A stretch of DNA of 64,000 nucleotides, taken from contig NZ_FOXQ01000008.1 in the NCBI RefSeq assembly GCF_900115755.1, forward strand, positions 149,867-213,866, in the 5' to 3' direction. Both the position numbers and the translations under genes were made by a program. Origin of the DNA: Parafilimonas terrae. GTDB taxonomy: Bacteria > Bacteroidota > Bacteroidia > Chitinophagales > Chitinophagaceae. The notes under the pieces were generated by a model. The model saw only the letters and a program-made list of their open reading frames with translations. It was not told the origin of the DNA and did no database searches. Below, piece by piece: positions 50,901-64,000 of this stretch (position 1 is the first letter of the stretch; each line of letters starts with the position of its first letter).

Positions 50901-53666
50901 GAACAGATCACCCAAACGGTATATGACCTGCTTTATGCACCTATTGAAGGCACCGTATTAAATGCGAAGAACCTGCGCAACAGGGTGGCTTATTCAGCGG
51001 TATATGAAACGGCAACCAAACAAACCCAGCTTAAGAATGCTGCAGCCACCTATTATTCTTATGATATAATGGGTAACGTGGATACGCTGGTGCAGGATTT
51101 TACCTTCGGCAATGGCAACCGGTTCTTTAAGAAGGTTATCTATAATTATGATCTTATCAGCGGCAAGGTGAATTCCATTATTTACCAGAAAGACCAGCCG
51201 GACGTATTCTATCATCGTTACACATACGATTTTGCCAATAAGCTCACCAATGTAGAAACCAGTGACGATAGCATTACCTGGGAGAATGATGCGTTTTATA
51301 ACTATTATGCACACGGGCCGCTTGCCAGGATGGTAGTTGGTGAGCAGCAGGTACAGGGTATGGATTATGCCTATACGTTGCAGGGCTGGCTGAAAGGCAT
51401 TAACTCCACCTCGCCGGGCACCAAGTTTGACATTGGCGCTGACGGACGTGCAGCGGAATATGCACCCAATGCCATGATAGGCCGGGATGTGTTTGGTTTG
51501 GCGTTATACTATTATGGACAGTCTGATTACAGCGCCATTAAACGCACCAACCTCGAACAGCCGTTTGCCAATGCCGACCCGCTGAATGCCTCTTTCTCTC
51601 CGTTGTACAATGGCAACATAGCTGCCATGAGCACCAACTTTAATGATGTGCCTGTAAACGGCACCAACATCAAGCCTTTACTCTATGCTTATCAATACGA
51701 CCAGTTGAACCGGCTGGTGCAGATGCGGGCCTTTAAAAACAGCATCGGGTTTACCAATGTTAGCAATATATGGTCACCGGTAGCGGTGGATGATTTTGGG
51801 GAAGATGCTGCCTATGATGCCAATGGCAACATTACCAGGTACAGGCGCTATGGCAGCAAGAGTGTGAACCTGGTTAGCGCCACGGTAATGGATAGCCTCA
51901 GCTACAAATACAATGCAGGCACCAACCAGCTGAATTACATAAAAGATAAAATTGGCGTGAATGCCTACACAACTGATATTGATAACCAGAGTGCTGACAA
52001 TTACAGCTACGATGCTATCGGTAACCTTACTGCTGATGTAAAAGAAGGCATAAGCAGTATTGAATGGACGGTGTATGGAAAGATTAAGACAATCAATAAA
52101 ACTGATGGCACCACAATAACCTACAAGTATGATGCTGCGGGCAACAGGGTGAGTAAAACGGTTGGTAACGTTGAAAGCTGGTATGTAAGGGATGCCAGTG
52201 GCAATATCTTAAGCATATACACAGCGGGAGATGCATCGGTAAACAACGGACATCTTACATGGTCGGAGGCAGACATATATGGCAGCAGCAGGCTGGGCAC
52301 TTATACACCGAACAAGGATATGACGGTTACTCCGCCTGCGAAAGAAGATTTACCAACGCTTGGTGAAGTAGGATATTTTGCTACATTTACAAGAGGGCAG
52401 AAGCATTATGAGCTTACGAACCACCTGGGTAATGTGCTGGCTGTTATAAGTGATAAGAAGATACAGGTGAGCTCGGATAATGTTACGGTAAGCTTTTGCA
52501 AAGCTTATATAGAATCAGCAAATGATTATTATCCTGGCGGTATGCAAATGCCAATGAGGACTTACACAGCTACAAGTTCTTTGTCTTACAGGTATGGTTT
52601 TAACGGAAAGGAAAAAGACAATGAGGTAAAAGGTGAAGGCAACCAGTATGATTATGGCTTTAGGATTTATGACCCGAGGGTGGTGAGGTTTTTAAGTGTT
52701 GACCCAATCACCAAAAAGTATCCTTGGTACACGCCTTATCAATTTGCGGGTAACAGCCCAATAAAAAATATAGACTTGGATGGATTAGAGCCTGCCGGGA
52801 ATCAAAGTGATTGGGAAGTTGTGCCTGGAAGCGTGAATGTTTATACAGCGTCACATGTAACTGAGAAAGGAAAGACTGTCTTAACCAGAGCAGAACAGCA
52901 GTTGGTTAAAGATAAGACAGGCGCTAAATATTGGGTTACTCATCATCAATGGGTTGAAACAGTAGATGGTATTTCTTCAACAGCGAATGATTACTCGTGG
53001 TATAATGAAGACCCTAAAATTAAACTGCCAGGGAAAGATGTAGGCAGGTGGCAGCGATTTGAAACTGATATTATAAAAGAGCAAAAGGGTAATTGGCAGA
53101 TGGCTGATAATATTGGTAAAGTCACGTTCGGTGCTGCGTTAGTTGGCACAGCTTTACCAGTGGCTGCATATACTGGCGGTTCATTATGGGCTTTAAATAA
53201 TCCGTTGACACGTGTTGGTTTAACAAAGGCATTAGTTGGAGGTTTAAGCGATATAGCTGGGCAAAAAACTGTTAATTCGGATAACCCAATTAATTGGTAT
53301 AGTGTGGGAGCAAGTAGTCTTTTTGGAAACCCTTGGATTGGTTCTGCAGTTGGTTCTTTAAAAACTAGAAGTATCAATGGAAAGTATAGTTGGTCAAGTG
53401 CCGAGGCCATTGCAACGACTACCATATTAGGTGGTATTGCAGGTTCGATAGGTGGAAAGGCTGGGCTTTCATATCCAGCCGATGCCACATATAGATCAAT
53501 CGGTAATCTTTCAGTTAGAGGCAGTGTCAATCTTCTTCCAAGTTATTGGTCTAATATAGGAGGTAATGTGTCTTCTAGTGCTGCTGTAAATGCCTTTTCT
53601 TCTACAACTTCATCAAATCAAAATTCAAATGAAAATCAAACCAATAATCAAAAACCCTCTTACTAG
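44907..53666 (+). CDS. Full-length Rhs protein (2919 aa) with tip 1
   Basis: A signal peptide (to about residue 28) starts the protein. A DUF6443-like segment lies at about 311-370 (FSGHEPRLNWQSEVTFAEDG, DYQGRPSLQVMPAPN), a long Cys-rich region at about 600-1830, then YD repeats (about 1840-2560: LYYYDQAGNLLQTIPPDAV, YDANGNITRYRRYG, YKYDAAGNRVSK). The Rhs core ends RYGFNGKEKDNEV, RFLSVDPITKKYP, PYQFAGNSP and DLDGLE (2623-2628). The variable tip is residues 2629-2919: an Ala/Gly-rich part with two hydrophobic stretches (GAALVGTALPVAAYTGGSLW; TTILGGIAGSIGG). Rhs shells encapsulate and release toxic tips; whether this tip is toxic, and how the protein leaves the cell, is inferred. Four partial copies of its core lie downstream. 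Confidence 0.88.
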   Translation: MFKFSEKIHLRLLIILILNVTVFSARASEDVPIIKVLDGSQGQLKTDSSITVNDDYQSALAAGKIEAGAYSRNAVTLRINEAATYQLTTGFVASVTVRIVYTSDMVQYDSVEKTLVINYDTSSIYANSRSFVFSGAHSVSVRVLAISLKRNGTDLAGTDADNTLSSLLLENSITRSPEYTFNCSSHNLVAIVATAVDGSGPADLDNTSTKHVYVSWPVVNGADEYDVEWTYIDSSALANNLYGSPLNKQLIFENNATRATVTGITTRIPLIYSGAGSVFIRVRPVHIINGRRITGKWSSERNPTLGLGRYNFSGHEPRLNWQSEVTFAEDGKKNVTVQYFDGSLRSRQAVSKDYGGMLSIVAETKYDYQGRPSLQVMPAPNFLSAMLNYKHVPNLTTDNNEYEKSVYDSAAGGSLCDVAAPAMGELIGAANYYSSQSLYYTNPNSLYERSMDFVPKANGYVFSQTVYTQDNTGRISRQGGVGQQFQVGNHDTRYYYGSASQEELDALFGTSVGNSSHYFKNMVQDANGQVSVSYTDMHGRTIATALAGNAPDNIQKLENFDSSSIIETLIDPSGVQVEDGAVTSKKSLLVPAKGDYVFNYALDPQSLGLANCQGVPICYDCLYDLQITITDDCNNKNFDGQPFDTLISNLSLPVPDTTCTNNPSAFNVTFTLPLEIGNYEITKTLRISKRAKDYYRDSVFMKKNTCVSLDSMISYQFSLINNAACKPTCETCMQSLGTWAQFRSSYMTSAGIPVTDTAKYRSEALAAYQEAISNCNVLCNYNAPTENDIRKSMLLDMTAPSGQYADLAKSTDEYSVFYADEDADDEQAVPLYARPGVNYLDEYGRQELVYNSATGTYVKPNELSAEEFSENFKPSWANALLSYHPEYCKLLQYELYNSSYQWDKKMQSIDTYSSASGSGYFTPTANTAAKDSFALMSTANLNQLNDSLNNYRHVQINGTGPTYTVSLWTMASMVTRCISGDDAQRQSCMENFIQHPIDSTFNSNWCTGDLNMAWRNFREMYLNIKREIIDGRIKNANCPQTPSAATLIAASHYPNFNEVNDAVSQNNLDYNVSSAESEDVKNATGSFYQSNCEAYATTWMQQLRTCVEYNQAAYDEIIPKLVAVCTKGSDVDHPYGSSSISPDSSYEYKSFEEVLTAYNQAHGITNTVNCNADLILQPKPYNQQQVYYRKPVWSKPSDCECETISSLYADYNAFKSGAETFSAYIKRTTDNDITQGALDTLRSMCNGSFSCNYLSKPIILPAALQCDKGDICISCEEFSVAYNQYKEKYPSKIPALPANDTAQVKINTLFTNYMNSRLGLGKPTVEYLDFMAQCSINVGNLVQQELPDVNKINTDVIPSFTIPNTPQSGECWNGTATSFSVKDSGYCVYGDNTQGSGMLFVIRPKSGEKFCYEAQSVAVELWFYRYSDHDLKSEGMFNISPANDKVCVLRSDFDLEGSANDYNMYGVCGTLPSCETTLPCTAETSDYEFIDLGTCSGQSSSTSRKIRIKPKAGKQICSGDSIVYLSVYYKTGTTTGEFKKSARIYADTGYTDICVTYLPSGFSLSNIVVCGPSLCDSTSNGGDSTGCYPVTDFHFEQRNFTETGSDPDECSIKTYDAYLVHNGEPVPATIKVPIKRKKTTLLNPSGGGSYSGTSITYFDTVTIQAGHSEAYIGNFTQADRMTEGTLTEDCLEITNVFSFSDSTQLVCGVPDQPGFCDSLHSIVDSFKIFYAGLANPKPDCKTSFASYYNSRKGTSYTFDDIQDISFSRCGAFLPVCPQTSGPKLCGKEVIYPPATIEEIDNCSDNEFFAVSTATERYIAYTDSLKNVFDTAYRNKCLQAYKYETFTVSHSIKEYHYTLYYYDQAGNLLQTIPPDAVVPNRSVTFLNQVKQKRAEGDTLTPAHIYTLATNYRYNSLNQVVMQKTPDAGTSSFYYDRLGRLVLSKNAKQATANNYSYTSYDAIGRITETGQLTSSATMNRTVSKKPAQLTTWLNNAKNTREQITQTVYDLLYAPIEGTVLNAKNLRNRVAYSAVYETATKQTQLKNAAATYYSYDIMGNVDTLVQDFTFGNGNRFFKKVIYNYDLISGKVNSIIYQKDQPDVFYHRYTYDFANKLTNVETSDDSITWENDAFYNYYAHGPLARMVVGEQQVQGMDYAYTLQGWLKGINSTSPGTKFDIGADGRAAEYAPNAMIGRDVFGLALYYYGQSDYSAIKRTNLEQPFANADPLNASFSPLYNGNIAAMSTNFNDVPVNGTNIKPLLYAYQYDQLNRLVQMRAFKNSIGFTNVSNIWSPVAVDDFGEDAAYDANGNITRYRRYGSKSVNLVSATVMDSLSYKYNAGTNQLNYIKDKIGVNAYTTDIDNQSADNYSYDAIGNLTADVKEGISSIEWTVYGKIKTINKTDGTTITYKYDAAGNRVSKTVGNVESWYVRDASGNILSIYTAGDASVNNGHLTWSEADIYGSSRLGTYTPNKDMTVTPPAKEDLPTLGEVGYFATFTRGQKHYELTNHLGNVLAVISDKKIQVSSDNVTVSFCKAYIESANDYYPGGMQMPMRTYTATSSLSYRYGFNGKEKDNEVKGEGNQYDYGFRIYDPRVVRFLSVDPITKKYPWYTPYQFAGNSPIKNIDLDGLEPAGNQSDWEVVPGSVNVYTASHVTEKGKTVLTRAEQQLVKDKTGAKYWVTHHQWVETVDGISSTANDYSWYNEDPKIKLPGKDVGRWQRFETDIIKEQKGNWQMADNIGKVTFGAALVGTALPVAAYTGGSLWALNNPLTRVGLTKALVGGLSDIAGQKTVNSDNPINWYSVGASSLFGNPWIGSAVGSLKTRSINGKYSWSSAEAIATTTILGGIAGSIGGKAGLSYPADATYRSIGNLSVRGSVNLLPSYWSNIGGNVSSSAAVNAFSSTTSSNQNSNENQTNNQKPSY

Positions 53667-54036
53667 TATTTTCATTGTTGTATTAGTATTTAGCATAATT
53701 TATATAAATGGTAGGAATAGTGAAGATGATTATCGGGAAAAGGTTTTAAACAAACCAGAGCTAACAACAGGCACTGTTACAAATGTTGAATTTAAAAGCC
53801 GCGTTGGATATGAAGTGCAATTTTATTTTTCTGCCAATAATGGTGAAATACATTCTAAAACCAGTTTTGGTGATATAGTCTCCTTGCAACATTTTATTAT
53901 TAATAAACAATTCCCGATAATCTTTAGTTCTGTCAATCCAAACTATAATATGATATTAATTTTACCTGAAGACTTCAAAGATTATAATGTTCCTTTTCCA
54001 GATAGTTTAAATTGGGTATTGCAATATGTAAAGTAG
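53629..54036 (+). CDS. Candidate immunity protein 1 (135 aa, one membrane helix)
   Basis: The start was placed at the ATG at 53629, which overlaps the Rhs gene by 38 bp; an upstream ATG at 53590 adds 13 low-complexity residues. The protein opens MKIKPIIKNPLTSIFIVVLV, a single membrane helix, followed by a soluble part (ELTTGTVTNVEFKSRVGYEV, FYFSANNGEIHSKTSF). A homologue with an MQVKQIIKSPL start follows tip 5 at 63860. Since both tips 1 and 5 are followed by this family, it is the cognate partner, probably a membrane-bound immunity protein. Confidence 0.75.
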   Translation: MKIKPIIKNPLTSIFIVVLVFSIIYINGRNSEDDYREKVLNKPELTTGTVTNVEFKSRVGYEVQFYFSANNGEIHSKTSFGDIVSLQHFIINKQFPIIFSSVNPNYNMILILPEDFKDYNVPFPDSLNWVLQYVK

Positions 54037-54039: not shown

Positions 54040-54067
54040 AAAGCCGTGCTTAAATTAGCGGCTTTTT
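54040..54067 (+). terminator. Terminator after immunity gene 1, abutting Rhs fragment 2
   Basis: AAAGCCG (54040-54046) and CGGCTTT (54059-54065) form a stem with a 12-base loop, followed by TT. The Rhs-homologous sequence of the next module begins at GCAGGCACC (54068), directly against the T-run. Confidence 0.6.
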
Positions 54068-54109
54068 GCAGGCACCAACCAGCTGAATTACATAAAAGAT
54101 AAAATTGGC

Positions 54110-55669
54110 GTGAATGCCTATACAACCGATATTGATAACCAGAGCGCCAACAATTACAGCTACGATGCTATTGGTAACCTTACTGCTGATGTAAAAGAAG
54201 GGATAAGCAGCATTGAATGGACGGTGTATGGAAAGATTAAGACAATCAATAAAACTGATGGCACCACGATAACCTATAAGTATGATGCTGCGGGCAACAG
54301 GGTAAGTAAAACGGTTGGTAACATTGAAAGCTGGTATGTAAGGGATGCCAGTGGCAATATCTTAAGCATATATACAGCGGGTGATGCATCGGTAAACAGC
54401 GGACATCTTACGTGGTCGGAGGCGGACATATATGGCAGCAGCCGGTTAGGCACATACACTCCCAACAAGGACATGACGGTTACGCCACCGGCGAAGGAAG
54501 ATTTACCAACACTTGGTGAAGTGGGATATTTTGCTACATTTACAAGAGGGCAGAAGCATTATGAGCTTACGAACCATTTGGGCAATGTGCTGGCTGTTAT
54601 AAGTGATAAGAAGATACAGGTGAGCTCGGATAATGTTACGGTAAGCTTCTGCAAAGCGTATATAGAATCAGCAAACGACTATTACCCTGGCGGTATGGCA
54701 ATGCCAATGAGGACATATATCGCTACAAGTTCTTTGTCTTACAGGTATGGATTTAATGGAAAAGAAAAAGACAACGAGGTTAAAGGTGAGGGTAATCAGT
54801 ATGATTATGGAATGAGAATTTATGATCCAAGAGCTGTAAGGTTTTTGAGTGTTGATCCACTTGCTCCAAAGTATCCTGAATTAACGCCTTATCAATTTGC
54901 TTCAAACAGGCCAATAGATGGGATAGATTTAGATGGATTGGAATGGTTTAAAAAAGATAACACACAATACACAATCAATTATAAACCCGTATTAAACACG
55001 CCAAACGTTTTAGCAGGCGCTAATAATGCAGCACACAACACTTTGGCCTTTATATGGAATGGTACTTTAGGTGCTTTAATGGAGGGTGGTAAAGGCATAA
55101 ATAATTACATTGCTGGTGGATATAAAGAACAAAGCAGCGCGCCTGACCCAGTTCATGATTTTATGGAGAGTACAAATGATGTGTTTAGGTATCATACAAG
55201 AACTCCATTTAAACAACAATTAAGTGATTTTGCTGATGCAGCTACTGATTTAAAGAACTATGAAATAATACCATCTATAGTACTTACTCATACATTATCA
55301 AGCTCTGCAGCAAGTGCTGCAACGTTTAGTGGGGATATAATTAGCGCAAGAAAACAATTAGCTTCCAATTGGGGAATACATGTTGAAAATGTAAATTTTG
55401 AAAAACAAGTATTTACACAGGCTGCTGATGTGAATACAACATATTACCAGTACCGAATACCCGGCACAGAAGCGGGTGCTTATTATGTAAAATCTTTAGA
55501 TATTACACCGGAGCAAGTAGGTTTATTATCTTCTGAATACACAGATGTATATAAAGTAACTGTTACAAAAAGAAGTCAGACATTAGTAAGTACCCATATA
55601 GAAGATGCAAAATATTGGCGTGATGGAAATAGCCCTGTTCAAGGTGGGGGGCAGCTAGTCCTGAATTAA
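54110..55669 (+). CDS. Orphan Rhs fragment with tip 2
   Basis: Rhs-core homology starts at 54068 (AGTNQLNYIKDKIG frame), immediately after a terminator, and the frame is closed by TAG at 54056-54058. The only plausible start is the GTG at 54110; in the full-length gene this is an ordinary Val. So it probably has no promoter or proper start of its own. After the DLDGLE boundary the tip is residues 279-519: WFKKDNTQYTINYKPVLNTP, then a helical middle and the end QYRIPGTEAGAYYVKSLDI, VYKVTVTKRSQT, PVQGGGQLVLN. The strand pattern and GGGQ end resemble ADP-ribosyltransferase-like polymorphic toxins; this is a resemblance only. Followed by a short putative immunity gene. Confidence 0.72.
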   Translation: MNAYTTDIDNQSANNYSYDAIGNLTADVKEGISSIEWTVYGKIKTINKTDGTTITYKYDAAGNRVSKTVGNIESWYVRDASGNILSIYTAGDASVNSGHLTWSEADIYGSSRLGTYTPNKDMTVTPPAKEDLPTLGEVGYFATFTRGQKHYELTNHLGNVLAVISDKKIQVSSDNVTVSFCKAYIESANDYYPGGMAMPMRTYIATSSLSYRYGFNGKEKDNEVKGEGNQYDYGMRIYDPRAVRFLSVDPLAPKYPELTPYQFASNRPIDGIDLDGLEWFKKDNTQYTINYKPVLNTPNVLAGANNAAHNTLAFIWNGTLGALMEGGKGINNYIAGGYKEQSSAPDPVHDFMESTNDVFRYHTRTPFKQQLSDFADAATDLKNYEIIPSIVLTHTLSSSAASAATFSGDIISARKQLASNWGIHVENVNFEKQVFTQAADVNTTYYQYRIPGTEAGAYYVKSLDITPEQVGLLSSEYTDVYKVTVTKRSQTLVSTHIEDAKYWRDGNSPVQGGGQLVLN

Positions 55670-55700
55670 AGAATTGCCACCTTTGAAAAAATTAATTCAA

Positions 55701-55985
55701 ATGGAAATTAATATATTGATTGATACTTTACATGATCGTTTATTAGCCTATAAAAAATCTGATTTATATCAAAATAAGGTGCTAAGGCAAGATATACTTT
55801 CTATTGAAATTGCAATATGTCTTTTTGAAATTGCTGTTTACTGCAACAGAACGATTAGCGAAGGAGAAAAATATTGGTTTAAAGGTGGATATTATATTGC
55901 TAATGACTTGACAGGCAAATGGGAAGACATATCAAAGATGTATGATGAATTAGTTAAAACAGCAAAAGAAAAAAAATTAATCTGA
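55701..55985 (+). CDS. Candidate immunity protein 2 (94 aa)
   Basis: The ATG at 55701 was preferred over the in-frame TTG at 55674 because it gives a clean helical start (MEINILIDTLHDRLLAYKKS). The protein is small, soluble and acidic to neutral, with VLRQDILSIEIAICLFEIAV and TGKWEDISKMYDELVKT. It lies 31 bp after tip 2 on the same strand, where an immunity gene is expected. No family recognised; the role is inferred from position. Confidence 0.65.
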   Translation: MEINILIDTLHDRLLAYKKSDLYQNKVLRQDILSIEIAICLFEIAVYCNRTISEGEKYWFKGGYYIANDLTGKWEDISKMYDELVKTAKEKKLI

Positions 55986-56030: not shown

Positions 56031-56160
56031 TTATTTTCTTTCCTTCATGAGCTTGTCAATGAGTTCATTTTTTTCTTTCAGCATACGTTCGTAAAGTTCA
56101 ATCTTCTGCCGATAGAGCTCTACTATTTTTTCAATCGGATTAAATTGATGGTTAACAGGC
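56031..56160 (-). pseudogene. Truncated XRE regulator remnant (coiled-coil tail only)
   Basis: Read on the minus strand this encodes VNHQFNPIEKIVELYRQKIE then LYERMLKEKNELIDKLMKERK, ending at a TAA. It matches the tail of the intact XRE gene at 57918-58304 (NYQFNSIEKIVELYQQKMEL). The HTH half is missing; its place is taken by the start of Rhs fragment 3 at about 56221. So recombination or deletion removed the 5' half. Confidence 0.75.
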
Positions 56161-56227
56161 AAAACATACGCTTGTTTTCTGTATTTTAGATAAGCAAAAC
56201 AAGTTCTTTGAATAGCATTCGGGCGGC

Positions 56228-57295
56228 ATGCAAATGCCAATGAGGACATATACGGCCACAAGTTCTTTGTCTTACAGGTATGGGTTTAATGGGAAGGAAA
56301 AAGATAACGAGGTTAAAGGAGAGGGTAATCAGTATGACTATGGATTTAGAATATATGACCCAAGAGCCGTAAGGTTTTTGAGTATTGATCCATTGACAAA
56401 ACATTATCCTGCATGGAGCCCATATCCTTTTGCAATGAATAACCCTGTATCAGGTGTTGACTTAGATGGGTTAGAATATTTATATTTTAATGAAGCTAGA
56501 ATAGAAGTAATGCGTGGAGGAGTTTTTTTAAAAATTGAAAACATGCATAATATTACTCAAAACGCCTTCAAACAAGCAAATTCAGATCCCAATAATTGGT
56601 CTTATGATCAATTTGGACATAAAGGAATAGGAATAAGTACTGAGATAGGTAGTATTAATTTGCAAAAATATACTCCCAATAGCGAAGCAGACTACAATGC
56701 AACAGATAACTCGCCGGGGGCGCCGGAACCAGATTTTCAGCCTGGGCAGACTCAGGTACAAAACCCAACTGCTAAAAGTACAGGATTACCGGATAAAAGA
56801 TATAAGGACAGAACAGTTAGCAGCGCTACTCCTGCTGGATCAAGAGGATTGGCATTGGCATCAATTGCAATAGATGCAATTATTGTTGGCTCAAATATTT
56901 CAGCTAATTATTTAGTTAATGATGACATCAATTTAGCAAAGAAACATATTGAAATTTTAAAGCAAGCAACATACGATGTTCAAACAGCGTTAAATGAGGG
57001 GTTAGTACCTCAAAAATATCTGACGGATGAATTTATTTCAGATATAATAAATGTTGTTTTATCTGGGGTTAGCAATCTTAATAATAAAGATATAAGTAAT
57101 ATAGGAAGACAAATCTATAACACAGTATCAAAAAGGAGGATGCCTTATGATGGACAAATCATAATGAGAGATGTTAGTGGTCAGGTTATTAAATCAATAC
57201 CCAAACCAAATCCTATCTATGACCCTAACTATGGTAAGACTAATAACTCAGCTTCACAATCGGAAAAGAAACCTGTAGCTGGTTCAGGGAATTAG
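56228..57295 (+). CDS. Orphan Rhs fragment with tip 3
   Basis: Core homology starts at about 56221. The junction happens to provide an ATG (MQMPMRTYTATSSLSYRYGF), which in the full-length Rhs is internal, so this copy could be translated by itself as a short core plus tip. Residues 1-83 are core, ending at DLDGLE. The tip, residues 84-355, reads YLYFNEARIEVMRGGVFLKI, a proline-rich middle (NSPGAPEPDFQPGQ), a hydrophobic helix (GLALASIAIDAIIVGSN) and a charged end (IYNTVSKRRMPYDGQIIMRD). No toxin family recognised. Its stop is directly adjacent to the stop of the convergent TPR gene; there is no plus-strand immunity gene. Confidence 0.68.
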   Translation: MQMPMRTYTATSSLSYRYGFNGKEKDNEVKGEGNQYDYGFRIYDPRAVRFLSIDPLTKHYPAWSPYPFAMNNPVSGVDLDGLEYLYFNEARIEVMRGGVFLKIENMHNITQNAFKQANSDPNNWSYDQFGHKGIGISTEIGSINLQKYTPNSEADYNATDNSPGAPEPDFQPGQTQVQNPTAKSTGLPDKRYKDRTVSSATPAGSRGLALASIAIDAIIVGSNISANYLVNDDINLAKKHIEILKQATYDVQTALNEGLVPQKYLTDEFISDIINVVLSGVSNLNNKDISNIGRQIYNTVSKRRMPYDGQIIMRDVSGQVIKSIPKPNPIYDPNYGKTNNSASQSEKKPVAGSGN

Positions 57296-57895
57296 TCAAT
57301 GAGATTGCATAGATGCTATTTTTTGCTGAATAGATTTTGCATTTGGATATTGTTCTAAGTATAGTTTGTAATATTTAATGGCGCTATCATTTTTATTAAT
57401 TTTTTCAAATGTTTGCGCTAACGGTAAACTATAATCTATGTTCATGGCATATGCTGTTCTGAAGTCTTCAATTGCTTCATCAAAATGATTTAATTTTAAA
57501 AAAGTGATAGCTCTTTTATTAAGCACATATGGATTTTTGTTTTTTATAACTGCAAAGTTATATTCAATAAGTGCGCTGTCATATTGCCCTTTTGCATCAT
57601 AGAACATTCCTTTAAGAGCATGTAAGTGTGTGTTATTGGGATATCTTGGAACTAATTGGTTTAAAACATTTTCAGCTTCAATTAATCTTCCTTTTTGTAT
57701 TAAATTTTCAATGCTGTCGTAAAAACTGGTTTCTTTATTTATACCATTTAGAAATGTATCTAAGCTTGGTTGTGTTTGTTGTTTTAATTCCTTTATCTTT
57801 TTTACAATGTCGGGTTTAGGGGTAAAAAAATTTATTAATAAAAAAGTAATTGCAATGGATATAATAACAGAAAAAAAAATTGAAGTTTTTTTCAT
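57296..57895 (-). CDS. TPR-repeat protein with N-terminal membrane anchor (199 aa)
   Basis: A membrane helix (MKKTSIFFSVIISIAITFLL) is followed by tetratricopeptide repeats: GRLIEAENVLNQLVPRYPNN, GMFYDAKGQYDSALIEYNFA, AITFLKLNHFDEAIEDFRTA and NDSAIKYYKLYLEQYPNA. It lies convergent with tip 3, stop against stop with no spacer, and 22 bp downstream of the XRE gene at 57918 on the same strand. It could be a misoriented partner (immunity) of tip 3 or a gene carried with the XRE regulator; neither can be decided from sequence. Confidence 0.78.
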   Translation of the reverse strand: MKKTSIFFSVIISIAITFLLINFFTPKPDIVKKIKELKQQTQPSLDTFLNGINKETSFYDSIENLIQKGRLIEAENVLNQLVPRYPNNTHLHALKGMFYDAKGQYDSALIEYNFAVIKNKNPYVLNKRAITFLKLNHFDEAIEDFRTAYAMNIDYSLPLAQTFEKINKNDSAIKYYKLYLEQYPNAKSIQQKIASMQSH

Positions 57896-57917: not shown

Positions 57918-58304
57918 TTATTTGTTTTGCATTAGCTTATCAATAAGTTCATTTTTTTCTTTTAGCATGCGTTCATAGAGTTCCATTTTTTGCTGGTAGA
58001 GTTCAACGATTTTTTCAATGGAATTAAACTGGTAGTTAACTGAAGAAGAATGGTCATGATAGTTGTTGGAGATAATATTAAAAGTAGCTTCTTCATTAAA
58101 GTTGCGGATAGCATCAGCTGTAACGCCGAGTGCTTTAGCCACTTTATCCAGCGTAGGTGCATCAATCGTTTCTTTCTGTTCAAGGAGGGAAACGGCCTGT
58201 TGTGTAATCTCCAGGTCTATAGCCAATGCATCCTGTTTAATGCCAAGTATCTCCCTTATGCGTTTCACGTTGTGGCCTTCGTGTATTTTATTTGCTGCTG
58301 CCAT
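57918..58304 (-). CDS. XRE-family regulator with coiled-coil tail, inside the Rhs array
   Basis: 128 residues from the ATG at 58302-58304; the frame is open to 58343, but MAAANKIHEGHNVKRIREIL is the natural start and leaves room for two operator-like palindromes upstream. The HTH is LGIKQDALAIDLEITQQAVS followed by LLEQKETIDAPTLDKVAKAL. The tail NSIEKIVELYQQKMELYERM, LKEKNELIDKLM is a coiled coil. A 3' remnant of the same gene type sits at 56031-56160. It is divergent from the XRE-sigma pair at 58424. Confidence 0.86.
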   Translation of the reverse strand: MAAANKIHEGHNVKRIREILGIKQDALAIDLEITQQAVSLLEQKETIDAPTLDKVAKALGVTADAIRNFNEEATFNIISNNYHDHSSSVNYQFNSIEKIVELYQQKMELYERMLKEKNELIDKLMQNK

Positions 58305-58329
58305 AAGTACAATGTTACAATATTTTAAA

Positions 58330-58366
58330 CTTGTAAAATACAAGCGGTTTGCTTGTGCAATACAAA
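58330..58366. promoter_or_regulatory. Two operator-like palindromes between divergent XRE genes
   Basis: CTTGTAAAATACAAG (58330-58344) is a perfect inverted repeat with 6-bp arms and AAA centre. A second, partly degenerate copy CTTGTGCAATACAAA follows at 58352-58366, spaced 22 bp from the first. Both lie 26-62 bp upstream of the minus-strand XRE start and 58-94 bp upstream of the plus-strand XRE start, the expected place for shared control. Confidence 0.55.
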
Positions 58367-58423: not shown

Positions 58424-58786
58424 ATGGCAACGGGCACATTAAAGATATTGCGGGAGTTAAATGATTATACGCAGGCGTTTGTGGCGGAGGATGTGCTGGG
58501 CATAAGCCAGGCCACGTATGCGAGGCTGGAGGCCAGCCCGTTAAAGCTCACCGCAGAACATGCCCAAAAATTAGCAGCATTATACAACGTAAGCGCAGAG
58601 CACCTGCTGGCAGCAGGCACGCCTGTAATTGTATTTAAACAGGCAGAAGATGGTAACAGCACCGCACAGCTTACCGCCACCCTTACAGCCCTGCAAACGC
58701 AGAACGAGCTTTTGATACAGCAAAATACAGAACTGGTAAAGCTGGTAAAAACATTAAGCCAACAAACAGCGCTGCCCTATGAATAA
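58424..58786 (+). CDS. XRE-family regulator with coiled-coil tail (pair B)
   Basis: 120 residues, paralogue of the gene at 14597: TLKILRELNDYTQAFVAEDV, LGISQATYARLEASPLKLTA and a tail LQTQNELLIQQNTELVKLVK. The stop overlaps the sigma factor start by 8 bases (ATGAATAA), so the two are translationally coupled. This is the intact form of the pair that is interrupted at 14597-15877. It sits inside the Rhs array, between tips 3 and 4. Confidence 0.87.
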   Translation: MATGTLKILRELNDYTQAFVAEDVLGISQATYARLEASPLKLTAEHAQKLAALYNVSAEHLLAAGTPVIVFKQAEDGNSTAQLTATLTALQTQNELLIQQNTELVKLVKTLSQQTALPYE

Positions 58787-59324
58787 GCCGCTAAATCATA
58801 GCAGTGTAAAAGAAGTGTTTTACCAATACTACCCACCCCTTTGCCTGTTTGCCGGGCGTTTGGTAAACAATGAAGAAGCCGCCGCCGATATAACCGAAGA
58901 AGTGTTTATAAAGCTGTGGCACAAACAACCCGACTTCAGTAAGTATAAAAACATCAAGGCCGTATTGTACATAGCCGTAAAAAATGCCTGCTTAAATTAT
59001 TTGCAGCAGCAAAAACGCAACACGGCCAGGCAATATGCCTTTGCTTACTTCACCCAAAACGAAAGCGAAGGTTGCATACAAAATGAGATAATACGCGCAG
59101 AGATATTGCGGGAAGTATATGCGGCGTTGCAGCAACTGCCAAAGGAGCAAAGACGTGTAATGCAGCTCTTGTTTACAGAAGGGCTGGACAGCAAAGCCGT
59201 GGCGGCAGCGCTGAACATCTCCATCCATACAGTAAAGAAGCATAAGCTCAACGGGCTAAAGGCTATAAGAAAAAAGCTTGGCGTGCCGGGCCTTATCATC
59301 ATAGCGGCGCTGGCGCATGTGTAA
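58779..59324 (+). CDS. ECF sigma-70 factor (Bacteroidota type), pair B
   Basis: 181 residues: region 2 NNEEAAADITEEVFIKLWHK with KNIKAVLYIAVKNACLNYLQ, region 4 QLPKEQRRVMQLLFTEGLDS and AVAAALNISIHTVKKHKLNG, then a hydrophobic end (GLIIIAALAHV). It closely matches the sigma factor at 15877. Its coding end overlaps, in another frame, the ATG of Rhs fragment 4 (ATGTGTAA, 8 bases), the same geometry as the XRE/sigma overlap. So a sigma factor is fused in transcription to a downstream Rhs tip gene. Confidence 0.88.
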   Translation: MNKPLNHSSVKEVFYQYYPPLCLFAGRLVNNEEAAADITEEVFIKLWHKQPDFSKYKNIKAVLYIAVKNACLNYLQQQKRNTARQYAFAYFTQNESEGCIQNEIIRAEILREVYAALQQLPKEQRRVMQLLFTEGLDSKAVAAALNISIHTVKKHKLNGLKAIRKKLGVPGLIIIAALAHV

Positions 59325-61899
59325 TGTTCTTTTCACCACCTATTATTCTTATGATATAATGGGCAACGTGGATACACTGGTGCAGGACTTTACATTTAAT
59401 AATGGTAACCGGTACTTTAAGAAGGTAATTTATAATTATGACCTCATCAGCGGCAAGGTCAATTCCATTGCTTATCAGAAAGGCCAGCCGGATGTATTCT
59501 ATCACCGCTACACGTACGATTTTGCCAATAAGCTCACCAATGCAGAGACCAGCACCGACAGCATTACCTGGGAAAATGATGCTTTTTATAACTATTATGC
59601 CCACGGGCCGCTGGCAAGGATGGTAGTTGGTGAGCAGCAGGTGCAGGGTATGGATTACGCTTATACGTTGCAGGGCTGGCTGAAAGGTGTCAACTCCACC
59701 TCACCGGGCACCAAGTTCGATATCGGCGCTGACGGCCGTGCGGCGGAATATGCACCCAATGCCATGATTGGCCGGGATGTGTTTGGTTTGGCATTATACT
59801 ATTATGGCCAGTCTGATTACAGCGCCATCAAGCGAAGCGCCCTGTTGCAGCCGTTTGCCAATGCCGACCCGCTGAATGCCTCTTTCTCTCCGTTGTACAA
59901 TGGCAACATAGCTGCCATGAGCACGAACTTTAATGATGTGCCTGTAAACGGTACCAACATTAAGCCTGTATTGTATGCCTATCAATACGACCAGCTTAAC
60001 CGGCTGGTGCAGATGCGGGCCTTTAAGAGCAGCATCGGGTTTACCAATGTAAGCAATATATGGGCGCCGGTAGCGGTGGATGATTTTGGTGAAGATGCCG
60101 CTTATGATGCCAACGGTAATATTACCAGGTACCGGCGTTATGGCAGCAAGAATGTGAACCTGGTAAGTGCCACGGTGATGGACAGCCTGAGCTACAAATA
60201 CAATGCAGGCACCAACCAACTGAATTACATAAAGGATAAAATTGGCGTGAATGCCTACACTACCGATATTGATAACCAAAGCGCCAACAATTACAGCTAC
60301 GATGCTATCGGTAACCTTACTGCAGATGTAAAAGAAGGCATAAGCAGCATTGAATGGACGGTGTATGGAAAGATAAAAACAATCAATAAAACTGATGGCA
60401 CCACAATAACCTATAAGTATGATGCTGCCGGCAACCGGGTAAGCAAGACAGTAGGAGATGTTGAGACCTGGTATGTAAGGGATGCCAGCGGCAATATCTT
60501 AAGCATATATACAGCGGGTGATGCATCGGTGAACAGCGGACATCTTACCTGGACGGAGGCAGACATATATGGCAGCAGCAGGCTGGGCACGTTTACACCC
60601 AACAAGGATATGACGGTTACTCCGCCAGCCCTGGAAGATTTACCAACACTTGGTGAAGTGGGATATTTTGCTACATTTACAAGAGGGCAGAAGCATTATG
60701 AGCTTACCAACCATCTGGGTAATGTGCTGGCTGTTATCAGCGACAAGAAGATACAGGTTAGTTCGGATAATGTTACGGTAAGTTTTTGCAAGGCGTATAT
60801 AGAATCGGCCAATGACTACTATCCCGGCGGTATGCAAATGCCGATGAGGGCATATACTGCTTCAAGTTCTTTGTCTTATAGGTACGGATTCAATGGGAAA
60901 GAAAAAGACAACGAGGTTAAAGGTGAAGGCAACCAGTATGATTATGGGTTCAGGATTTATGATCCGAGGACAGGCAGGTTTTTGAGTGTTGACCCGTTAT
61001 TCCAATCTTACCCTTGGTATACACCTTATCAGTTTGCAGGCAACAAGCCGATTTGGGCGATTGATTTAGATGGGTTGGAAGAAAAAACGAGTACAAATAA
61101 AGGGTTGACATTTTTTCCGATACTTACACCCGTTAAGGCAAGAACTGCTGGTCAAATGATGTCTCAGCAGTTTAGTAAATCTGCACAAGCATTTTCGGAA
61201 TCAAGAACCGGAAAATTCATAGGGGGCGCATGGAATTTTACTACTGGAACAATTGGGGCGCTTGCTTCTGTAAGTTATATAAGTGCGACAGATGGGGCAG
61301 GCGCAGCGGTCGGAGGTGTCGTGGCATTGCAATTTTCTTTTGGAGAGATGTCAATAGGAACTGCACAAATGATGGATGCTCTCTTTTCAAAAAAGACAAA
61401 TGATGTATTACAAAATTCAGGTTCAATTCCTGGATTAATAGCTTATGGCACAGGATCTAAATATGCACCTTTTATTGATGCACTTGGACAGTTTACACCT
61501 ACTTTATCTACTGCAGGCTCGCTTAATGGATTAGTTAATAGTGGTTTGGGTATAATTGATGCAGCCAAAACCCTTAATAACACTCCGACTATAGCCAACA
61601 CAATTGCTCTGTTGGATCAAATTAGCGACACTAAAGGGTTCGTGTTAGAGTCGTTTAATCTGGCCAATGATGCCAGTGGTGGAAAGCTGAAACAATCCTT
61701 AAGTTATGCTTTCTCTTATACGGTTCAACAAGGTGATAATCTTACAAGTATTGCTGATAAATTTCATACTACTGTCGAAACAATAGCTAAGGACAATGGA
61801 ATAAAAGATATTAATAAAATTAATGAAGGGCAAAGTTTAAAGTTTTCTGGTTATGCAAAGGGTACATCTGGTGGTGCTGGCTCGTCTGATAATTATTAA
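59317..61899 (+). CDS. Orphan Rhs fragment with tip 4, LysM end
   Basis: The largest partial copy: 860 residues. Core homology starts at about 59334 (TYYSYDIMGNVDTLVQDFTF, as in the full-length gene at about 51046), just after the sigma factor stop. The ATG at 59317 adds only MCNVLF and is coupled to the sigma gene. YD repeats and core end at DLDGLE (residue 587-588). The tip, 589-860, has a Gly/Ala-rich helical part (TGKFIGGAWNFTTGTIGALA) and closes with a LysM domain at about 801-846 (YTVQQGDNLTSIADKFHTTV, INEGQSLKFSG). LysM binds peptidoglycan or other glycans, so the tip may be targeted to cell walls. Followed by a two-helix membrane gene. Confidence 0.78.
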   Translation: MCNVLFTTYYSYDIMGNVDTLVQDFTFNNGNRYFKKVIYNYDLISGKVNSIAYQKGQPDVFYHRYTYDFANKLTNAETSTDSITWENDAFYNYYAHGPLARMVVGEQQVQGMDYAYTLQGWLKGVNSTSPGTKFDIGADGRAAEYAPNAMIGRDVFGLALYYYGQSDYSAIKRSALLQPFANADPLNASFSPLYNGNIAAMSTNFNDVPVNGTNIKPVLYAYQYDQLNRLVQMRAFKSSIGFTNVSNIWAPVAVDDFGEDAAYDANGNITRYRRYGSKNVNLVSATVMDSLSYKYNAGTNQLNYIKDKIGVNAYTTDIDNQSANNYSYDAIGNLTADVKEGISSIEWTVYGKIKTINKTDGTTITYKYDAAGNRVSKTVGDVETWYVRDASGNILSIYTAGDASVNSGHLTWTEADIYGSSRLGTFTPNKDMTVTPPALEDLPTLGEVGYFATFTRGQKHYELTNHLGNVLAVISDKKIQVSSDNVTVSFCKAYIESANDYYPGGMQMPMRAYTASSSLSYRYGFNGKEKDNEVKGEGNQYDYGFRIYDPRTGRFLSVDPLFQSYPWYTPYQFAGNKPIWAIDLDGLEEKTSTNKGLTFFPILTPVKARTAGQMMSQQFSKSAQAFSESRTGKFIGGAWNFTTGTIGALASVSYISATDGAGAAVGGVVALQFSFGEMSIGTAQMMDALFSKKTNDVLQNSGSIPGLIAYGTGSKYAPFIDALGQFTPTLSTAGSLNGLVNSGLGIIDAAKTLNNTPTIANTIALLDQISDTKGFVLESFNLANDASGGKLKQSLSYAFSYTVQQGDNLTSIADKFHTTVETIAKDNGIKDINKINEGQSLKFSGYAKGTSGGAGSSDNY

Positions 61900-61908: not shown

Positions 61909-62334
61909 GTGATAGAAATAAAAAGTAAAAAAGATTATTATAAGTCTTTAATCAAATCTAGTTTATGGATAGTGGTTGGTTTTTTAATAATACAGATGAT
62001 AAATCCTTCTTTTTTCTTTGGGACCCTAATTATTTTTTTAGTTATAGAAGCAATTTTAATTTCTGAAAATTTTACTCAAAGTATCAGCATTGATGCTTTG
62101 AATGTAAAGATTATAAAGTATCATTTTTTTTCAAAAGAAGAAATCGTTATCGAAAGAAATAAAGTCGAATTTAAACTCTTAAAAAAGGCTTCTTTTCGAA
62201 GCCCAGGCTATTTTGTATTAGATGTTTTAGAAAATAAAAGGAGAATTTATACCATTGATAGCCGTAACGGTTTTGAAGAAGAAGAATTAATAAAGTTAAA
62301 TGATTTTTTAAAATCTAAAAACGCTTTTGATTGA
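61909..62334 (+). CDS. Candidate immunity protein 4 (141 aa, two membrane helices)
   Basis: A GTG start at 61909 gives MIEIKSKKDYYKSLIKSSLW. Two hydrophobic helices follow (WIVVGFLIIQMINP, FFFGTLIIFLVIEAILI), then a soluble strand-rich part (LNVKIIKYHFFSKEEIVIER). It lies 9 bp after tip 4 on the same strand. A membrane location fits protection against a cell-envelope toxin, as expected from the LysM end of tip 4. Family not recognised. Confidence 0.68.
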   Translation: MIEIKSKKDYYKSLIKSSLWIVVGFLIIQMINPSFFFGTLIIFLVIEAILISENFTQSISIDALNVKIIKYHFFSKEEIVIERNKVEFKLLKKASFRSPGYFVLDVLENKRRIYTIDSRNGFEEEELIKLNDFLKSKNAFD

Positions 62335-62371: not shown

Positions 62372-62439
62372 ATTTATAACCGTATTGTTTTTAGTATGGT
62401 TCATCGCCGTTAATATTCGTTGCCAACGGCTATTACATT

Positions 62440-62510
62440 CCTTCATCAGTTCTCAATGGGTTCATTTTTTCTTAAGCATGCGTTCATAGAGCTCAATTGT
62501 TGTTGGGTAG
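62440..62510 (-). pseudogene. Remnant of XRE coiled-coil tail
   Basis: On the minus strand this short stretch resembles the tail of the XRE genes at 57918 and 56031 (LYERML-like codons in AGCATGCGTTCATAGAGCTC on the plus strand), but it is broken by stops. It lies just downstream of the short XRE gene at 62534 and suggests that an older XRE gene once stood here. Confidence 0.45.
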
Positions 62511-62533
62511 ATGTTTTTATTCTATACAGCAAC

Positions 62534-62722
62534 TTATTTAAAGAAGTCAACAAGTTCAGCTTTAAGTGCGGCAGCCAGTTTAACCATCGTAAAGAACTCT
62601 ATGTTTAGCTTACCGTTTTCTATGCGGCTAATATCGCTGTGATTGATTCCGGTAGCCACTTCCAGGTCAAGCTGCGACATTTTATTTTTCTTGCGCAGGC
62701 TTTTTAGTTTAAGGCTAAACAA
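62534..62722 (-). CDS. Short XRE-family regulator (62 aa)
   Basis: A bare HTH: SLKLKSLRKKNKMSQLDLEV, then TGINHSDISRIENGKLNIEF and AAALKAELVDFFK. There is no coiled-coil tail. It stands inverted between immunity gene 4 and Rhs fragment 5, the same position relative to a tip module as the XRE remnant at 56031 has to fragment 3. Probably a repressor; target unknown. Confidence 0.8.
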   Translation of the reverse strand: MFSLKLKSLRKKNKMSQLDLEVATGINHSDISRIENGKLNIEFFTMVKLAAALKAELVDFFK

Positions 62723-62784
62723 TTCGATTTAAAATCCTATATTGTTTATGATTACATAAGCTATTTGAATAGCATTCCGGCGGT

Positions 62785-63897
62785 ATGCAAATGCCAATGA
62801 GGACATATACGGCCACAAGTTCTTTGTCTTACAGGTATGGGTTTAATGGTAAGGAAAAAGATCCAAATATTACAAGCGAAGATTATGATTACGGTGCAAG
62901 AATATACGATGCAAGGACCGTGAGGTTTTTAAGCATTGACCCAATCACCCAAAAGTATCCTTGGTACACGCCTTATCAATTTGCGGGTAACAGCCCAATA
63001 AAAAATATAGACTTGGATGGATTAGAGCCTGCCGGGAATCAAAGTGATTGGGAAGTTGTGCCTGGAAGCGTGAACGTTTATGCAGCGTCACATGTAACTG
63101 AGAAAGGAAAGACTGTCTTAACCAGGGCAGAACAGCAGTTGGTTAAAGATAAGACAGGCGCTAAATATTGGGTTACTCATCATCAATGGGTTGAAACAGT
63201 AGATGGTATTTCTTCAACAGCGAATGATTACTCGTGGTATAATGAAGACCCTAAAATTAAACTGCCAGCGAAAGATGTAGGCAGGTGGCAGCGATTTGAA
63301 ACTGATATTATAAAAGAGCAGAAAGGTAATTGGCAAATGGCTGATAATATTGGCAAAGTTACTTTCGGTGCCGCGTTAGTTGGCACAGCGTTACCTGTGG
63401 CTGCATATACGGGGGGTTCATTATGGGCTATCAATAATCCTTTCACACGTGTTGGTTTAACAAAGGCACTAGTTGGTGGTACCGTTGACTTATTAGCTCA
63501 AAAAACGGTTAATACAGATGGCCCTGTAAATTGGTACAATGTAGGTGCAAGTGCAGCTTTTGGAAATCCATGGACCGCATCATTTGCGGGTTCCTTGTCC
63601 TTTAGAGATAATACGGGCTATCATTTATCAGGTGGAACTGATATAGTAACAGGTACCGTTTTAAGTGGTGTTACTGGTTCGATTGGTGGGAAACTGAGCA
63701 TACCATATTCTGCTGCAAGTTTAAGACCTGGAGGCAATTCTACAGTAAGAGCGGGTCTTAATCTCTTACCTGGTTATTGGAGTAGTGTAGCAGGATATTT
63801 ATCTTCAGGTGCTGCATCAAATGCAATTTATCCTTCCACATCATCAAATCAAAATTCAAATGCAAGTCAAACAAATAATCAAGAGCCCCCTCGTTAG
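62785..63897 (+). CDS. Orphan Rhs fragment with tip 5 (related to tip 1)
   Basis: Core homology starts at about 62776 and supplies an internal ATG (MQMPMRTYTATSSLSYRYGF). The core differs from the other copies just after GKEKD (PNITSEDYDYGARIYDARTV), then returns to near identity with the full-length gene from SIDPITQKYPW on. Residues 82-370 are the tip. Its first half is almost base-for-base the same as tip 1 (NQSDWEVVPGSVNVYAASHV), while the second half, from about 63478, is a distinct variant (GTVDLLAQKTVNTDGP, GTVLSGVTGSIGGKL). So tips 1 and 5 are alleles of one family with divergent C-terminal parts, each with its own immunity gene. Confidence 0.78.
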   Translation: MQMPMRTYTATSSLSYRYGFNGKEKDPNITSEDYDYGARIYDARTVRFLSIDPITQKYPWYTPYQFAGNSPIKNIDLDGLEPAGNQSDWEVVPGSVNVYAASHVTEKGKTVLTRAEQQLVKDKTGAKYWVTHHQWVETVDGISSTANDYSWYNEDPKIKLPAKDVGRWQRFETDIIKEQKGNWQMADNIGKVTFGAALVGTALPVAAYTGGSLWAINNPFTRVGLTKALVGGTVDLLAQKTVNTDGPVNWYNVGASAAFGNPWTASFAGSLSFRDNTGYHLSGGTDIVTGTVLSGVTGSIGGKLSIPYSAASLRPGGNSTVRAGLNLLPGYWSSVAGYLSSGAASNAIYPSTSSNQNSNASQTNNQEPPR

Positions 63898-64000
63898 TGT
63901 TGCTGTTATAATCTTAGTAGCGCTTTTAATTTATATCAGTGGCAAAAAAAGTGGAAACGATTACAAAACCAATATTTTAAATAAACCATCTTTGACAACT
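63860..64000 (+). CDS. Candidate immunity protein 5, 3' end outside window
   Basis: The ATG at 63860 overlaps the end of tip 5 by 38 bp, exactly as immunity gene 1 overlaps tip 1. The 47 visible codons read MQVKQIIKSPLVSVAVIILV then ALLIYISGKKSGNDY and NKPSLTT, a membrane helix followed by the same start as immunity protein 1 (MKIKPIIKNPL...; NKPELTT). The stop lies beyond the window. Confidence 0.75.
   Translation, partial: MQVKQIIKSPLVSVAVIILVALLIYISGKKSGNDYKTNILNKPSLTT

What the first reader, a model, noticed from the sequence alone, without database searches (positions are those of the whole stretch)
52541..64000. Five-tip Rhs array: one full-length Rhs gene followed by four promoterless core-plus-tip modules
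The full-length gene (44907-53666) is followed by partial copies of its own 3' core, each ending at the same DLDGLE boundary and then switching to a tip (54944, 56477, 61081, 63028). Entry points into the core differ: about 54068, 56221, 59334 and 62776. Most copies lack their own promoter and start. Orphan rhs-CT modules are known in Enterobacteria; here the array is large and in a Bacteroidota. The likely use is to swap the expressed tip by homologous recombination within the core, keeping unused tips in store with their immunity genes.
Basis: partly seen in the sequence, partly recalled or inferred. Interest (0 to 1): 0.85.

Follow-up and report, generated by a model that had tools for sequence, protein, structure and literature searches.

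The report
Rhs toxin tips shuffled by recombinase
This stretch of a Bacteroidota genome holds one complete Rhs toxin gene followed by a store of spare toxin tips, two of which begin at one shared short DNA site; a recombinase of a family found close to such stores in many related bacteria likely flips or moves the tips at that site, which would let one toxin gene change its warhead without losing the spares.

Summary
In detail: a 2919-aa Rhs gene (44907-53666) is followed by four partial core copies that end at the same DLDGLE boundary. The window ends at the contig end. Contig C28 probably continues the array, with two more modules head to head and a tyrosine recombinase gene.

The interpretation changes. 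Modules 3 and 5, two on C28 and one on C26 start at the same core codons. Relatives of the recombinase are in 17 of 93 other Rhs stretches. Of 17 found by profile in 395 genomes, 12 have an Rhs core end within 1.5 kb. Multi-module loci hold inverted modules in 13 of 14 cases with the recombinase, 6 of 33 without. Ten main/inverted pairs share an exact block starting near TTACTATCC. In one MAG a 4.9-kb contig carries the site inverted at both ends, as expected if both orientations coexist.

I read this as a shufflon-like switch of toxin tips. No inversion was seen directly, and the window's own modules are direct repeats.

The parts
36542..44143 (+). 2533-aa protein with a PA14 domain, first gene of the run that leads into the Rhs gene (gaps of 1 and 3 bases)
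44145..44903 (+). 252-aa LolA3-family protein between the PA14 protein and the Rhs gene
   Evidence: NCBIfam NF053579 115.7 bits over cut-off 83
44907..53666 (+). full-length Rhs gene, 2919 aa, with DUF6443, RHS repeat, RHS-associated core and tip 1
52536..52552 (+). core junction site of the main gene (GGCGGTATGCAAATGCC, codons of YYPGG/MQMP)
52696..53095 (+). tract 94-100% identical to module 5, between a 64-71% flank and a decline to about 60%: recombination mosaic
53590..54036 (+). candidate immunity gene 1 (148 aa, no Pfam hit)
54067..55669 (+). module 2: core copy 54067-54942 (90%), tip from 54944, Ntox46 match below cut-off; core site at 54689; no boxA-like leader seen
55674..55985 (+). 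candidate immunity gene 2 (103 aa, no Pfam hit)
56203..56220 (+). leader end of module 3: boxA-like GTTCTTTGAA running into TTTGAATAGCATTC, which meets the core at 56222
56222..57295 (+). module 3: short core end and tip (ORF 56228-57295)
57296..57895 (-). TPR protein (199 aa) convergent with module 3; possible partner gene, not tested
59317..61899 (+). module 4: core copy from 59336 (89%) and tip with a C-terminal LysM domain; core site at 60826
61909..62334 (+). candidate immunity gene 4 (141 aa, no Pfam hit)
62764..62777 (+). leader end of module 5, TTTGAATAGCATTC (boxA-like element weak: GCTATTTGAAT)
62779..63897 (+). module 5: short core end and a tip whose first part is nearly that of tip 1
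63809..64000 (+). start of candidate immunity gene 5, cut by the contig end

Best explanation
The window holds one full-length Rhs toxin gene and four stored core-plus-tip modules, and the tips are likely exchanged by site-specific recombination at one short site in the rhs core (the codons for YYPGG, YYPFG in many relatives), catalysed by a tyrosine recombinase whose gene lies beside the array's probable continuation on contig C28. Shown: the modules; the shared start point of the short ones; the recombinase family close to such modules in many genera, with its conserved residues kept; the inverted main/stored pairs in those genera; the exact shared block at the site; the mosaic between tips 1 and 5. 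Inferred: that this recombinase acts on this site; that inverted pairs flip reversibly and direct pairs are excised or moved; that homologous recombination in longer core copies (modules 2 and 4) adds exchange; that stored tips are silent because the export part and start are missing; and that the leaders of short modules (TAnnTT element, boxA-like motif) keep the immunity genes of silent tips transcribed.
For: Shared start: TTTGAATAGCATTC occurs exactly 3 times in the genome, each time at a module start (junctions). C28 has two joints at the site, core-left to leader at 4010 and right half to right half at 2391: the two wrong pairings of one dyad-like site. Recombinase: relatives of 218-308 bits in 16 other fetched Rhs stretches and a 77-bit partial in a 17th, of 93 other stretches with a core end; Arg178, Lys205, His288, Arg291, His314 and Tyr324 invariant in 17 rows (catalytic roles recalled). 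Profile search without regard to neighbours: 22 matches of 239 bits or more in 18 of 395 genomes, the next at 159 bits (at most five candidates per genome were scored); of the 17 genomes other than this one, one locus each, 12 have a core end within 1.5 kb, against 1 of 12 lower-scoring loci, that one a fragment of the family. Inverted pairs in 13 of 14 multi-module loci with the recombinase, 6 of 33 without, Fisher p 2.3e-6. Shared block starts 13-20 nt left of the GG of PFG in 10 main/inverted pairs; PFG wobble bases identical in 10 of 10 pairs, 8 of 90 between loci; Tyr-Tyr codons TAC TAT in 9 of 9 against 15 of 52, p 7.5e-5. In MAG SAIW01 two contigs end at the same 27-nt site and a 4890-bp contig carries it inverted at both ends; a recombinase relative (query residues 10-349 of 350) ends 136 nt before one of those contig ends. 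Beyond the recombinase in L074, L077, L082 and L107 lie genes of ordinary function.
Against: In the window all modules point the same way, so a flip cannot explain them. The main gene here has TAT TAT, not TAC TAT, and modules 2 and 4 start elsewhere in the core. Not all short modules elsewhere begin at YYPFG: in L049, L090, L106, L129 and L135 recognisable homology begins about ten codons later. In L133, which has the recombinase and inverted modules but no main gene in the stretch, my anchors gave no shared block. The C25-C28 link has a gap of about 200 bases and is inferred. In this genome the recombinase lies next to an integrated mobile element. The exact site TTACTATCCNTTYGG is in only 1 of 17 profile-search loci. 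The three-contig pattern was not found in G448, the one other genome tried. The boxA-like motif appears in 1 of 11 anchored modules of the profile-search loci. The assembler and k-mer length of the MAG are unknown to me; a k of 27 or less would break there without any inversion.
Confidence: 0.62

Rival explanations
1. Only RecA-type homologous recombination between core copies exchanges tips, as in Salmonella; the recombinase is a passenger and the shared start point is inherited from one ancestral cassette that was copied.
For: Direct-repeat modules with 0.9-1.7 kb of 89-90% core in the window; a mosaic whose ends lie inside the core and inside the tip; the Salmonella precedent (PMC3967940, abstract and passages).
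Against: Does not predict the recombinase within 1.5 kb of a core end in 12 of 17 profile-search loci, the link to inverted modules, or exact blocks of only 22-24 nt at the same codons in L074, L077 and L144 with differences on both sides.
Confidence: 0.2
2. The recombinase is the integrase of mobile elements that use the rhs core as attachment site; short modules are the right halves of genes split by past insertions.
For: In this genome primase, MobC, relaxase and coupling protein genes follow the recombinase, and the left half of a core ends at the site next to it.
Against: In L074, L077, L082 and L107 the neighbours beyond the recombinase include threonine synthase, saccharopine dehydrogenase and a C-N hydrolase, a polysaccharide export protein and a UPF0029 protein; none of the ten neighbours scanned from six loci is a mobility gene by Pfam.
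Confidence: 0.12
3. The fragments are decayed duplicates or misassemblies without function.
For: The array breaks at a contig end; some joints on C28 are inverted repeats, a known source of misassembly; regulator pieces are broken.
Against: The tip ORFs stay open over about 240-290 residues; the same design recurs in several genera, in isolates as well as MAGs.
Confidence: 0.06

Closest known systems
Main/orphan rhs loci of enterobacteria (Salmonella rhs-CT orphan switch, PMC3967940, abstract and passages seen)
   Same: One full-length gene, 3' fragments downstream that lack translation start and export parts, each with a tip after a conserved boundary and an immunity gene; recombination fuses a stored tip to the main gene.
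   Different: In the passages seen the proposed switch is homologous recombination after a duplication. Here a recombinase family, a shared short site and inverted copies are linked to the modules.
Shufflon of plasmid R64 (description in PMC3414803, passages seen)
   Same: Constant N-terminal part, several alternative C-terminal parts separated by recombination sites, a tyrosine recombinase gene as part of the system, inversion between inverted sites.
   Different: Swaps pilus-tip adhesins on a plasmid; here toxin tips with partner genes in Bacteroidota. Membership of the recombinase in the Rci family was not tested, and inversion was not observed.
Polymorphic toxin cassettes (PMC3482391, passages seen)
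   Same: Stored toxin-immunity cassettes that can replace the tip of a full-length toxin gene by recombination.
   Different: The passages that I saw name recombination in general and no dedicated recombinase or site.
BoxA of rRNA operons and of suhB (PMC5725501, passages seen; consensus GYTCTTTAANA for gamma-proteobacteria)
   Same: The leaders of many short modules have A[AC]GTTCTTTGA; GTTCTTTGA is in the rRNA spacer of this genome.
   Different: No NusB binding or antitermination was tested; the motif was rare in the modules of the profile-search loci.

Membership tests
Rhs main/orphan locus | full-length Rhs protein with RHS-associated core and variable C-terminal tip | tested here: met
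   TIGR03696 47 bits over cut-off 32.5; PF05593 and DUF6443 over cut-off
Rhs main/orphan locus | downstream partial copies with the same boundary and other tips | tested here: met
Rhs main/orphan locus | each tip paired with a cognate immunity gene | tested here: inconclusive
   small ORFs after tips 1, 2 and 4 without Pfam hits, the start of one after tip 5, none on the same strand right after tip 3; function not testable here
Rhs main/orphan locus | stored tip found fused to a full-length gene in a relative | tested here: inconclusive
   tip 2 in 348 genomes of the order: one partial relative on a 286-aa frame. Tip 4: matches almost all to the LysM part, two of them in long frames, one of these not examined. 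Tip 1 not answered, tip 3 not searched
Shufflon-like inversion system | recombinase gene close to the partial ORFs | tested here: met
   C28 4120-5169 and relatives in other Rhs loci
Shufflon-like inversion system | partial ORFs in inverted orientation | tested here: inconclusive
   met on C28 and in 13 of 14 multi-module recombinase loci, C28 being one of the 13; not met inside the window, where all five copies are direct
Shufflon-like inversion system | common recombination site at the head of each partial ORF | tested here: inconclusive
   modules 3 and 5, C26 and C28 start at it and ten main/inverted pairs share it; modules 2 and 4 keep longer cores that contain it; some modules elsewhere start later
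Shufflon-like inversion system | both orientations occur in one culture | not testable with these tools
   no reads held; contig ends in SAIW01 fit it, G448 gave no second case
XerC/XerD chromosome resolvases | score over the NCBIfam cut-off | tested here: not met
   own recombinase XerD 21.6 against 329.6, XerC 19.4 against 335.15 bits
Integrase of an integrative mobile element | mobility genes beside it throughout the family | tested here: not met
   present in this genome, none among ten neighbours scanned in L074, L077, L082, L099, L107 and L144
BoxA antitermination element | sequence like the rRNA boxA of the same organism | tested here: met
   GTTCTTTGA in own rRNA spacer, GTTCTTTAA in own leader; GTTCTTTGAA at module 3, C26 and C28
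BoxA antitermination element | binds NusB/NusE and suppresses Rho | not testable with these tools
   needs experiment

The most novel reading that the evidence does not exclude
Bacteroidota carry a toxin shufflon: a dedicated tyrosine recombinase family cuts inside the rhs coding sequence at the YYPFG codons and reversibly joins any stored tip to the single export-competent gene, while the leader at the head of the stored tip (own promoter and boxA) keeps its immunity gene on, so that a cell can change its weapon in one step and stay immune to its unswitched sisters.
Probability: 0.45. Interest if true: 0.9.

Novelty: new variant of a known kind. Interest (0 to 1): 0.8.

Why it matters
Stored Rhs tips are known, but in the work that I saw the swap is a homologous event found in passaged cells. 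A dedicated recombinase and site would turn it into a programmed switch and make the question testable: the two orientations can be counted in reads of any cultured relative. It would also give a recombinase that works inside a coding sequence, with a site set by a conserved peptide motif, and a possible answer to how silent tips keep their immunity genes expressed.

Tried and rejected
Looked for relatives with another tip on the full-length gene: tip 2 gave none in 348 genomes; tip 4 gave almost only LysM matches. First concerted-evolution test used an ungapped window and found the own main gene closest in 5 of 32; I replaced it with gapped alignments and rank against other main genes (11 pairs, 46 pairs). 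The change was made after seeing the first result, so it should be repeated on new data. Promoter and terminator scan of 53400-64000: about as many sites as in shuffles (sigma-70 type, which does not cover Bacteroidota promoters). The boxA and TAnnTT motifs were found by looking; the k-mer and tetramer rankings were unsupervised (1024 patterns tried), but the profile-search loci did not repeat the boxA. No -33 element found. Search of PDB sequences with the recombinase alignment: none at 1e-5.

Paper searches for Rhs, polymorphic toxin or toxin with shufflon, inversion or invertible: 1 paper; 8; 1; 0; 2; no listed title describes such a system, and the library lacks most subscription journals. 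An inversion survey, PMC5903667, has no 'rhs' in its text (passages). BoxA: no paper held boxA with antitermination and polymorphic toxin in the 20 listed of 49, and none of six held Rhs; on boxA and CRISPR arrays gave nothing used here.

In one search twelve loci were laid out; L120 and L133 have no main gene in the stretch and are not among the ten pairs.
Full report
Observation. The window is G000:C25:149867-213866 and its last base is the last base of the contig. A run of genes with gaps of 1 and 3 bases, a 2533-aa PA14 protein, a LolA3-family protein and a 2919-aa Rhs protein, occupies 36542-53666. Four partial copies of the Rhs core follow, all in the same direction, each running to DLDGLE and then into another tip. 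The longer copies are 89-90% identical to the main gene; in all copies but module 5 identity falls towards the tip, from about 85-95% to about 50% over the last 250 bases.

The array is larger than the window. Contig C28 starts with 69 bases 93% identical to the end of the first immunity gene, then 173 bases 95% identical to the sequence before module 5, then a module on the minus strand and one on the plus strand that meet head to head, then a left core half and a tyrosine recombinase gene. A further module lies on C26. The link C25-C28 leaves a gap of about 200 bases and is my inference. Own-genus G006 has a contig of the same length and with the same listed rows as JABDAV010000118.1, a Bacteroidetes MAG, which is why I call the organism a Bacteroidota.

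Recombination between tips. Main gene and module 5 are 64-71% identical in mid-core, 94-100% from 52696 to about 53095, 88-90% to about 53245 and mostly 60-68% after that. This is a mosaic: exchange has happened. A wider test used 46 orphan-main pairs from 21 loci: the first 60 bases on the junction side are 0.787 identical within a locus and 0.568 between loci, and the own main gene stands at percentile 0.86 by locus (15 of 21 loci at 0.95 or more); the last 60 bases before the tip are 0.605 and 0.591, percentile 0.52 (1 of 21). An earlier, cruder version of this test had not favoured the own main gene (5 of 32).

A common start point. Modules 3 and 5 and the C26 module join TTTGAATAGCATTC to the core at the codons YYPGG/MQMPMR; that 14-mer occurs exactly three times in the genome. 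The two C28 modules are cut at the same codons. On C28 the right halves are joined to each other at 2391, and at 4010 a left half is joined to an inverted leader. These are the two wrong pairings expected if a dyad-like site is cut and rejoined, though a misassembly at inverted repeats cannot be excluded. Among core ends from the 75 named loci and earlier genomes, 83 keep the left half, 65 follow unrelated sequence with stops and 25 are open without it. Many of the 65 begin at YYPFG or PFG; not all do: in L049, L090, L106, L129 and L135 recognisable homology begins about ten codons later.

The recombinase. The C28 recombinase (350 aa) has relatives of 218-308 bits in 16 other fetched Rhs stretches, two of them in L100, and a 77-bit partial in L146; L081 and L128 hold only weak matches of 55 and 74 bits. 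That is 17 of 93 other stretches with a core end; the stretches are up to 20 kb and some gene-to-module distances are several kb. Seventeen aligned rows keep Arg178, Lys205, His288, Arg291, His314 and Tyr324 (I recall these as the catalytic set). A profile search of 395 genomes of the class, which pays no regard to neighbours, gave 22 matches of 239 bits or more in 18 genomes, then nothing down to 159 bits (at most five candidates per genome were scored). Of the 17 loci outside this genome, one per genome, 12 have an Rhs core end within 1.5 kb at E 1e-3, the weakest 30.7 bits; of 12 loci from the lower group 1 has, and that one is a fragment of the family. Of the five without, two contigs end 142 and 94 bases past the recombinase (lengths). 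Among the 120 best of 417 database relatives the given names are integrase, site-specific or tyrosine-type recombinase, XerD and hypothetical protein; the own protein falls far below the XerC and XerD cut-offs.

Architecture in relatives. In L072, L077, L082, L099, L107 and L144 the full-length gene and one inverted stored module enclose 2.9-3.7 kb (5.2 kb in L074), and the recombinase frame starts 93-230 bases beyond the stored core end; L103, L118, L120 and L133 are variants with the recombinase inside or with more tips. Among loci with two or more core ends, inverted pairs occur in 13 of 14 with the recombinase and 6 of 33 without. In ten main/inverted pairs (nine in recombinase loci, L121 without) the shared block begins 13-20 bases left of the end of the PFG-coding GG, near TTACTATCC (ACTATCC in L144), and runs 6 to 78 bases right. 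In L074, L077 and L144 it is only 22-24 bases. L120 and L133 have no main gene in the stretch; in L133 my anchors gave no shared block. The three wobble bases of PFG agree in 10 of 10 pairs and 8 of 90 cross-locus pairs. Core ends that keep their left half use TAC TAT for the two tyrosines in 9 of 9 cases in recombinase loci, 15 of 52 elsewhere. In the profile-search loci the exact sequence TTACTATCCNTTYGG was present in only 1 of 17, so the site must vary by lineage, or the codon bias is a feature of the first sample.

A trace of both orientations. In MAG SAIW01 (Chitinophagaceae CW01) contig C7 ends with the left half of a main gene plus ACAGGATTACTATCCTTTCGGGATGAC, contig C3 ends with a recombinase relative (40% identity, L220 364-1383), a boxA-like leader and the same 27 bases, and the 4890-base contig C13 carries the 27 bases at both ends in inverted orientation. 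If only one orientation were present, reads longer than 27 bases should have joined these. The assembler is not known to me, and a search for the site of L192 in G448 found it once only.

Leaders. An unsupervised count over 84 orphan core ends in 44 loci put GTTCTT first among 6-mers (23 of 44 loci, 3.1 expected), AGTTCTT among 7-mers and TTCTTTGA among 8-mers; the logo is A[AC]GTTCTTTGA. The rRNA spacer of this genome has GTTCTTTGA, and the published gamma-proteobacterial boxA is GYTCTTTAANA (PMC5725501, passages). The most enriched gapped tetramer just upstream is TA..TT, 18.4 of 24 loci against 7.3, which I recall as the core of the Bacteroidota -7 element; no -33 partner was found. In the profile-search loci 1 of 11 anchored modules had the boxA-like motif; two leaders at contig ends, L192 and L220, have it by eye. 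So it is a feature of part of the family. My reading, that leaders keep the immunity genes of silent tips transcribed, is inference.

Is the recombinase a mobile-element integrase? In this genome a primase, MobC, relaxase and coupling protein follow it. Among ten neighbours from six other loci there is no mobility gene by Pfam; several are ordinary enzymes and three have no hit. I therefore read it as a dedicated enzyme that here has an element beside it.

Verdict. The find is a main/orphan Rhs array by anatomy, and works, most likely, like a shufflon. What is new to me is the recombinase family, the site in the coding sequence and the inverted tips; no title listed in the searches describes this, within a library that lacks most subscription journals. 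The window's own array, with direct modules and two longer core copies, is a less clean example than the two-tip loci of its relatives.

Noticed in passing
window 56046-56156, 57918-58343, 62438-62704; L004 116-288: XRE-type regulator genes or their remnants lie on the minus strand upstream of modules 3 and 5, before module 4 and on C28; an 82% repeat joins two of them and the intact one has an HTH_3 domain.
   Followed up: partly
window 58424-59324 and 14595-16443: An HTH gene plus sigma-70-like gene just before module 4 resembles a second stretch in the same window (73-76%); module 4's core starts 12 bases after the end of that sigma gene.
   Followed up: no
L004 4120-11414 (contig C28): Integrated mobile element genes (primase, MobC, relaxase, T4SS coupling protein) beside the recombinase in this genome; none among ten neighbours scanned in six other loci.
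   Followed up: partly
L004 2391 and 4010: Two reciprocal-looking joints: right half to right half, and left half to inverted leader, both at the core site.
   Followed up: partly
window 61081-61899: Tip 4 ends in a LysM domain (48 bits); elsewhere in the order its matches are almost all to the LysM part.
   Followed up: partly
window 55382-55525; L004 1392-2408: Weak matches to Ntox46 just below the curated cut-off in tip 2 (21.4 bits) and in the minus-strand C28 tip (24.8 bits).
   Followed up: no
window 44145-44903: A LolA3-family protein sits between the PA14 protein and the Rhs gene; its role in export of Rhs is unknown to me.
   Followed up: no
L192 end, L199: The junction site is a perfect palindrome in some relatives (CCGTTCC-TTT-GGAACGG in L192; about 12-base arms in L199), seen by eye.
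   Followed up: no
L045 (own-genus G006, C118): Four short modules in a row, each with a GCTCTTTGAATA leader, and no full-length gene found on that 9-kb contig.
   Followed up: no
L091, L108, L075: Whole contigs bounded at both ends by inverted Rhs core ends, like the SAIW01 segment; in L091 and L108 similar leaders stand at both ends, so the breaks may be due to repeats.
   Followed up: partly
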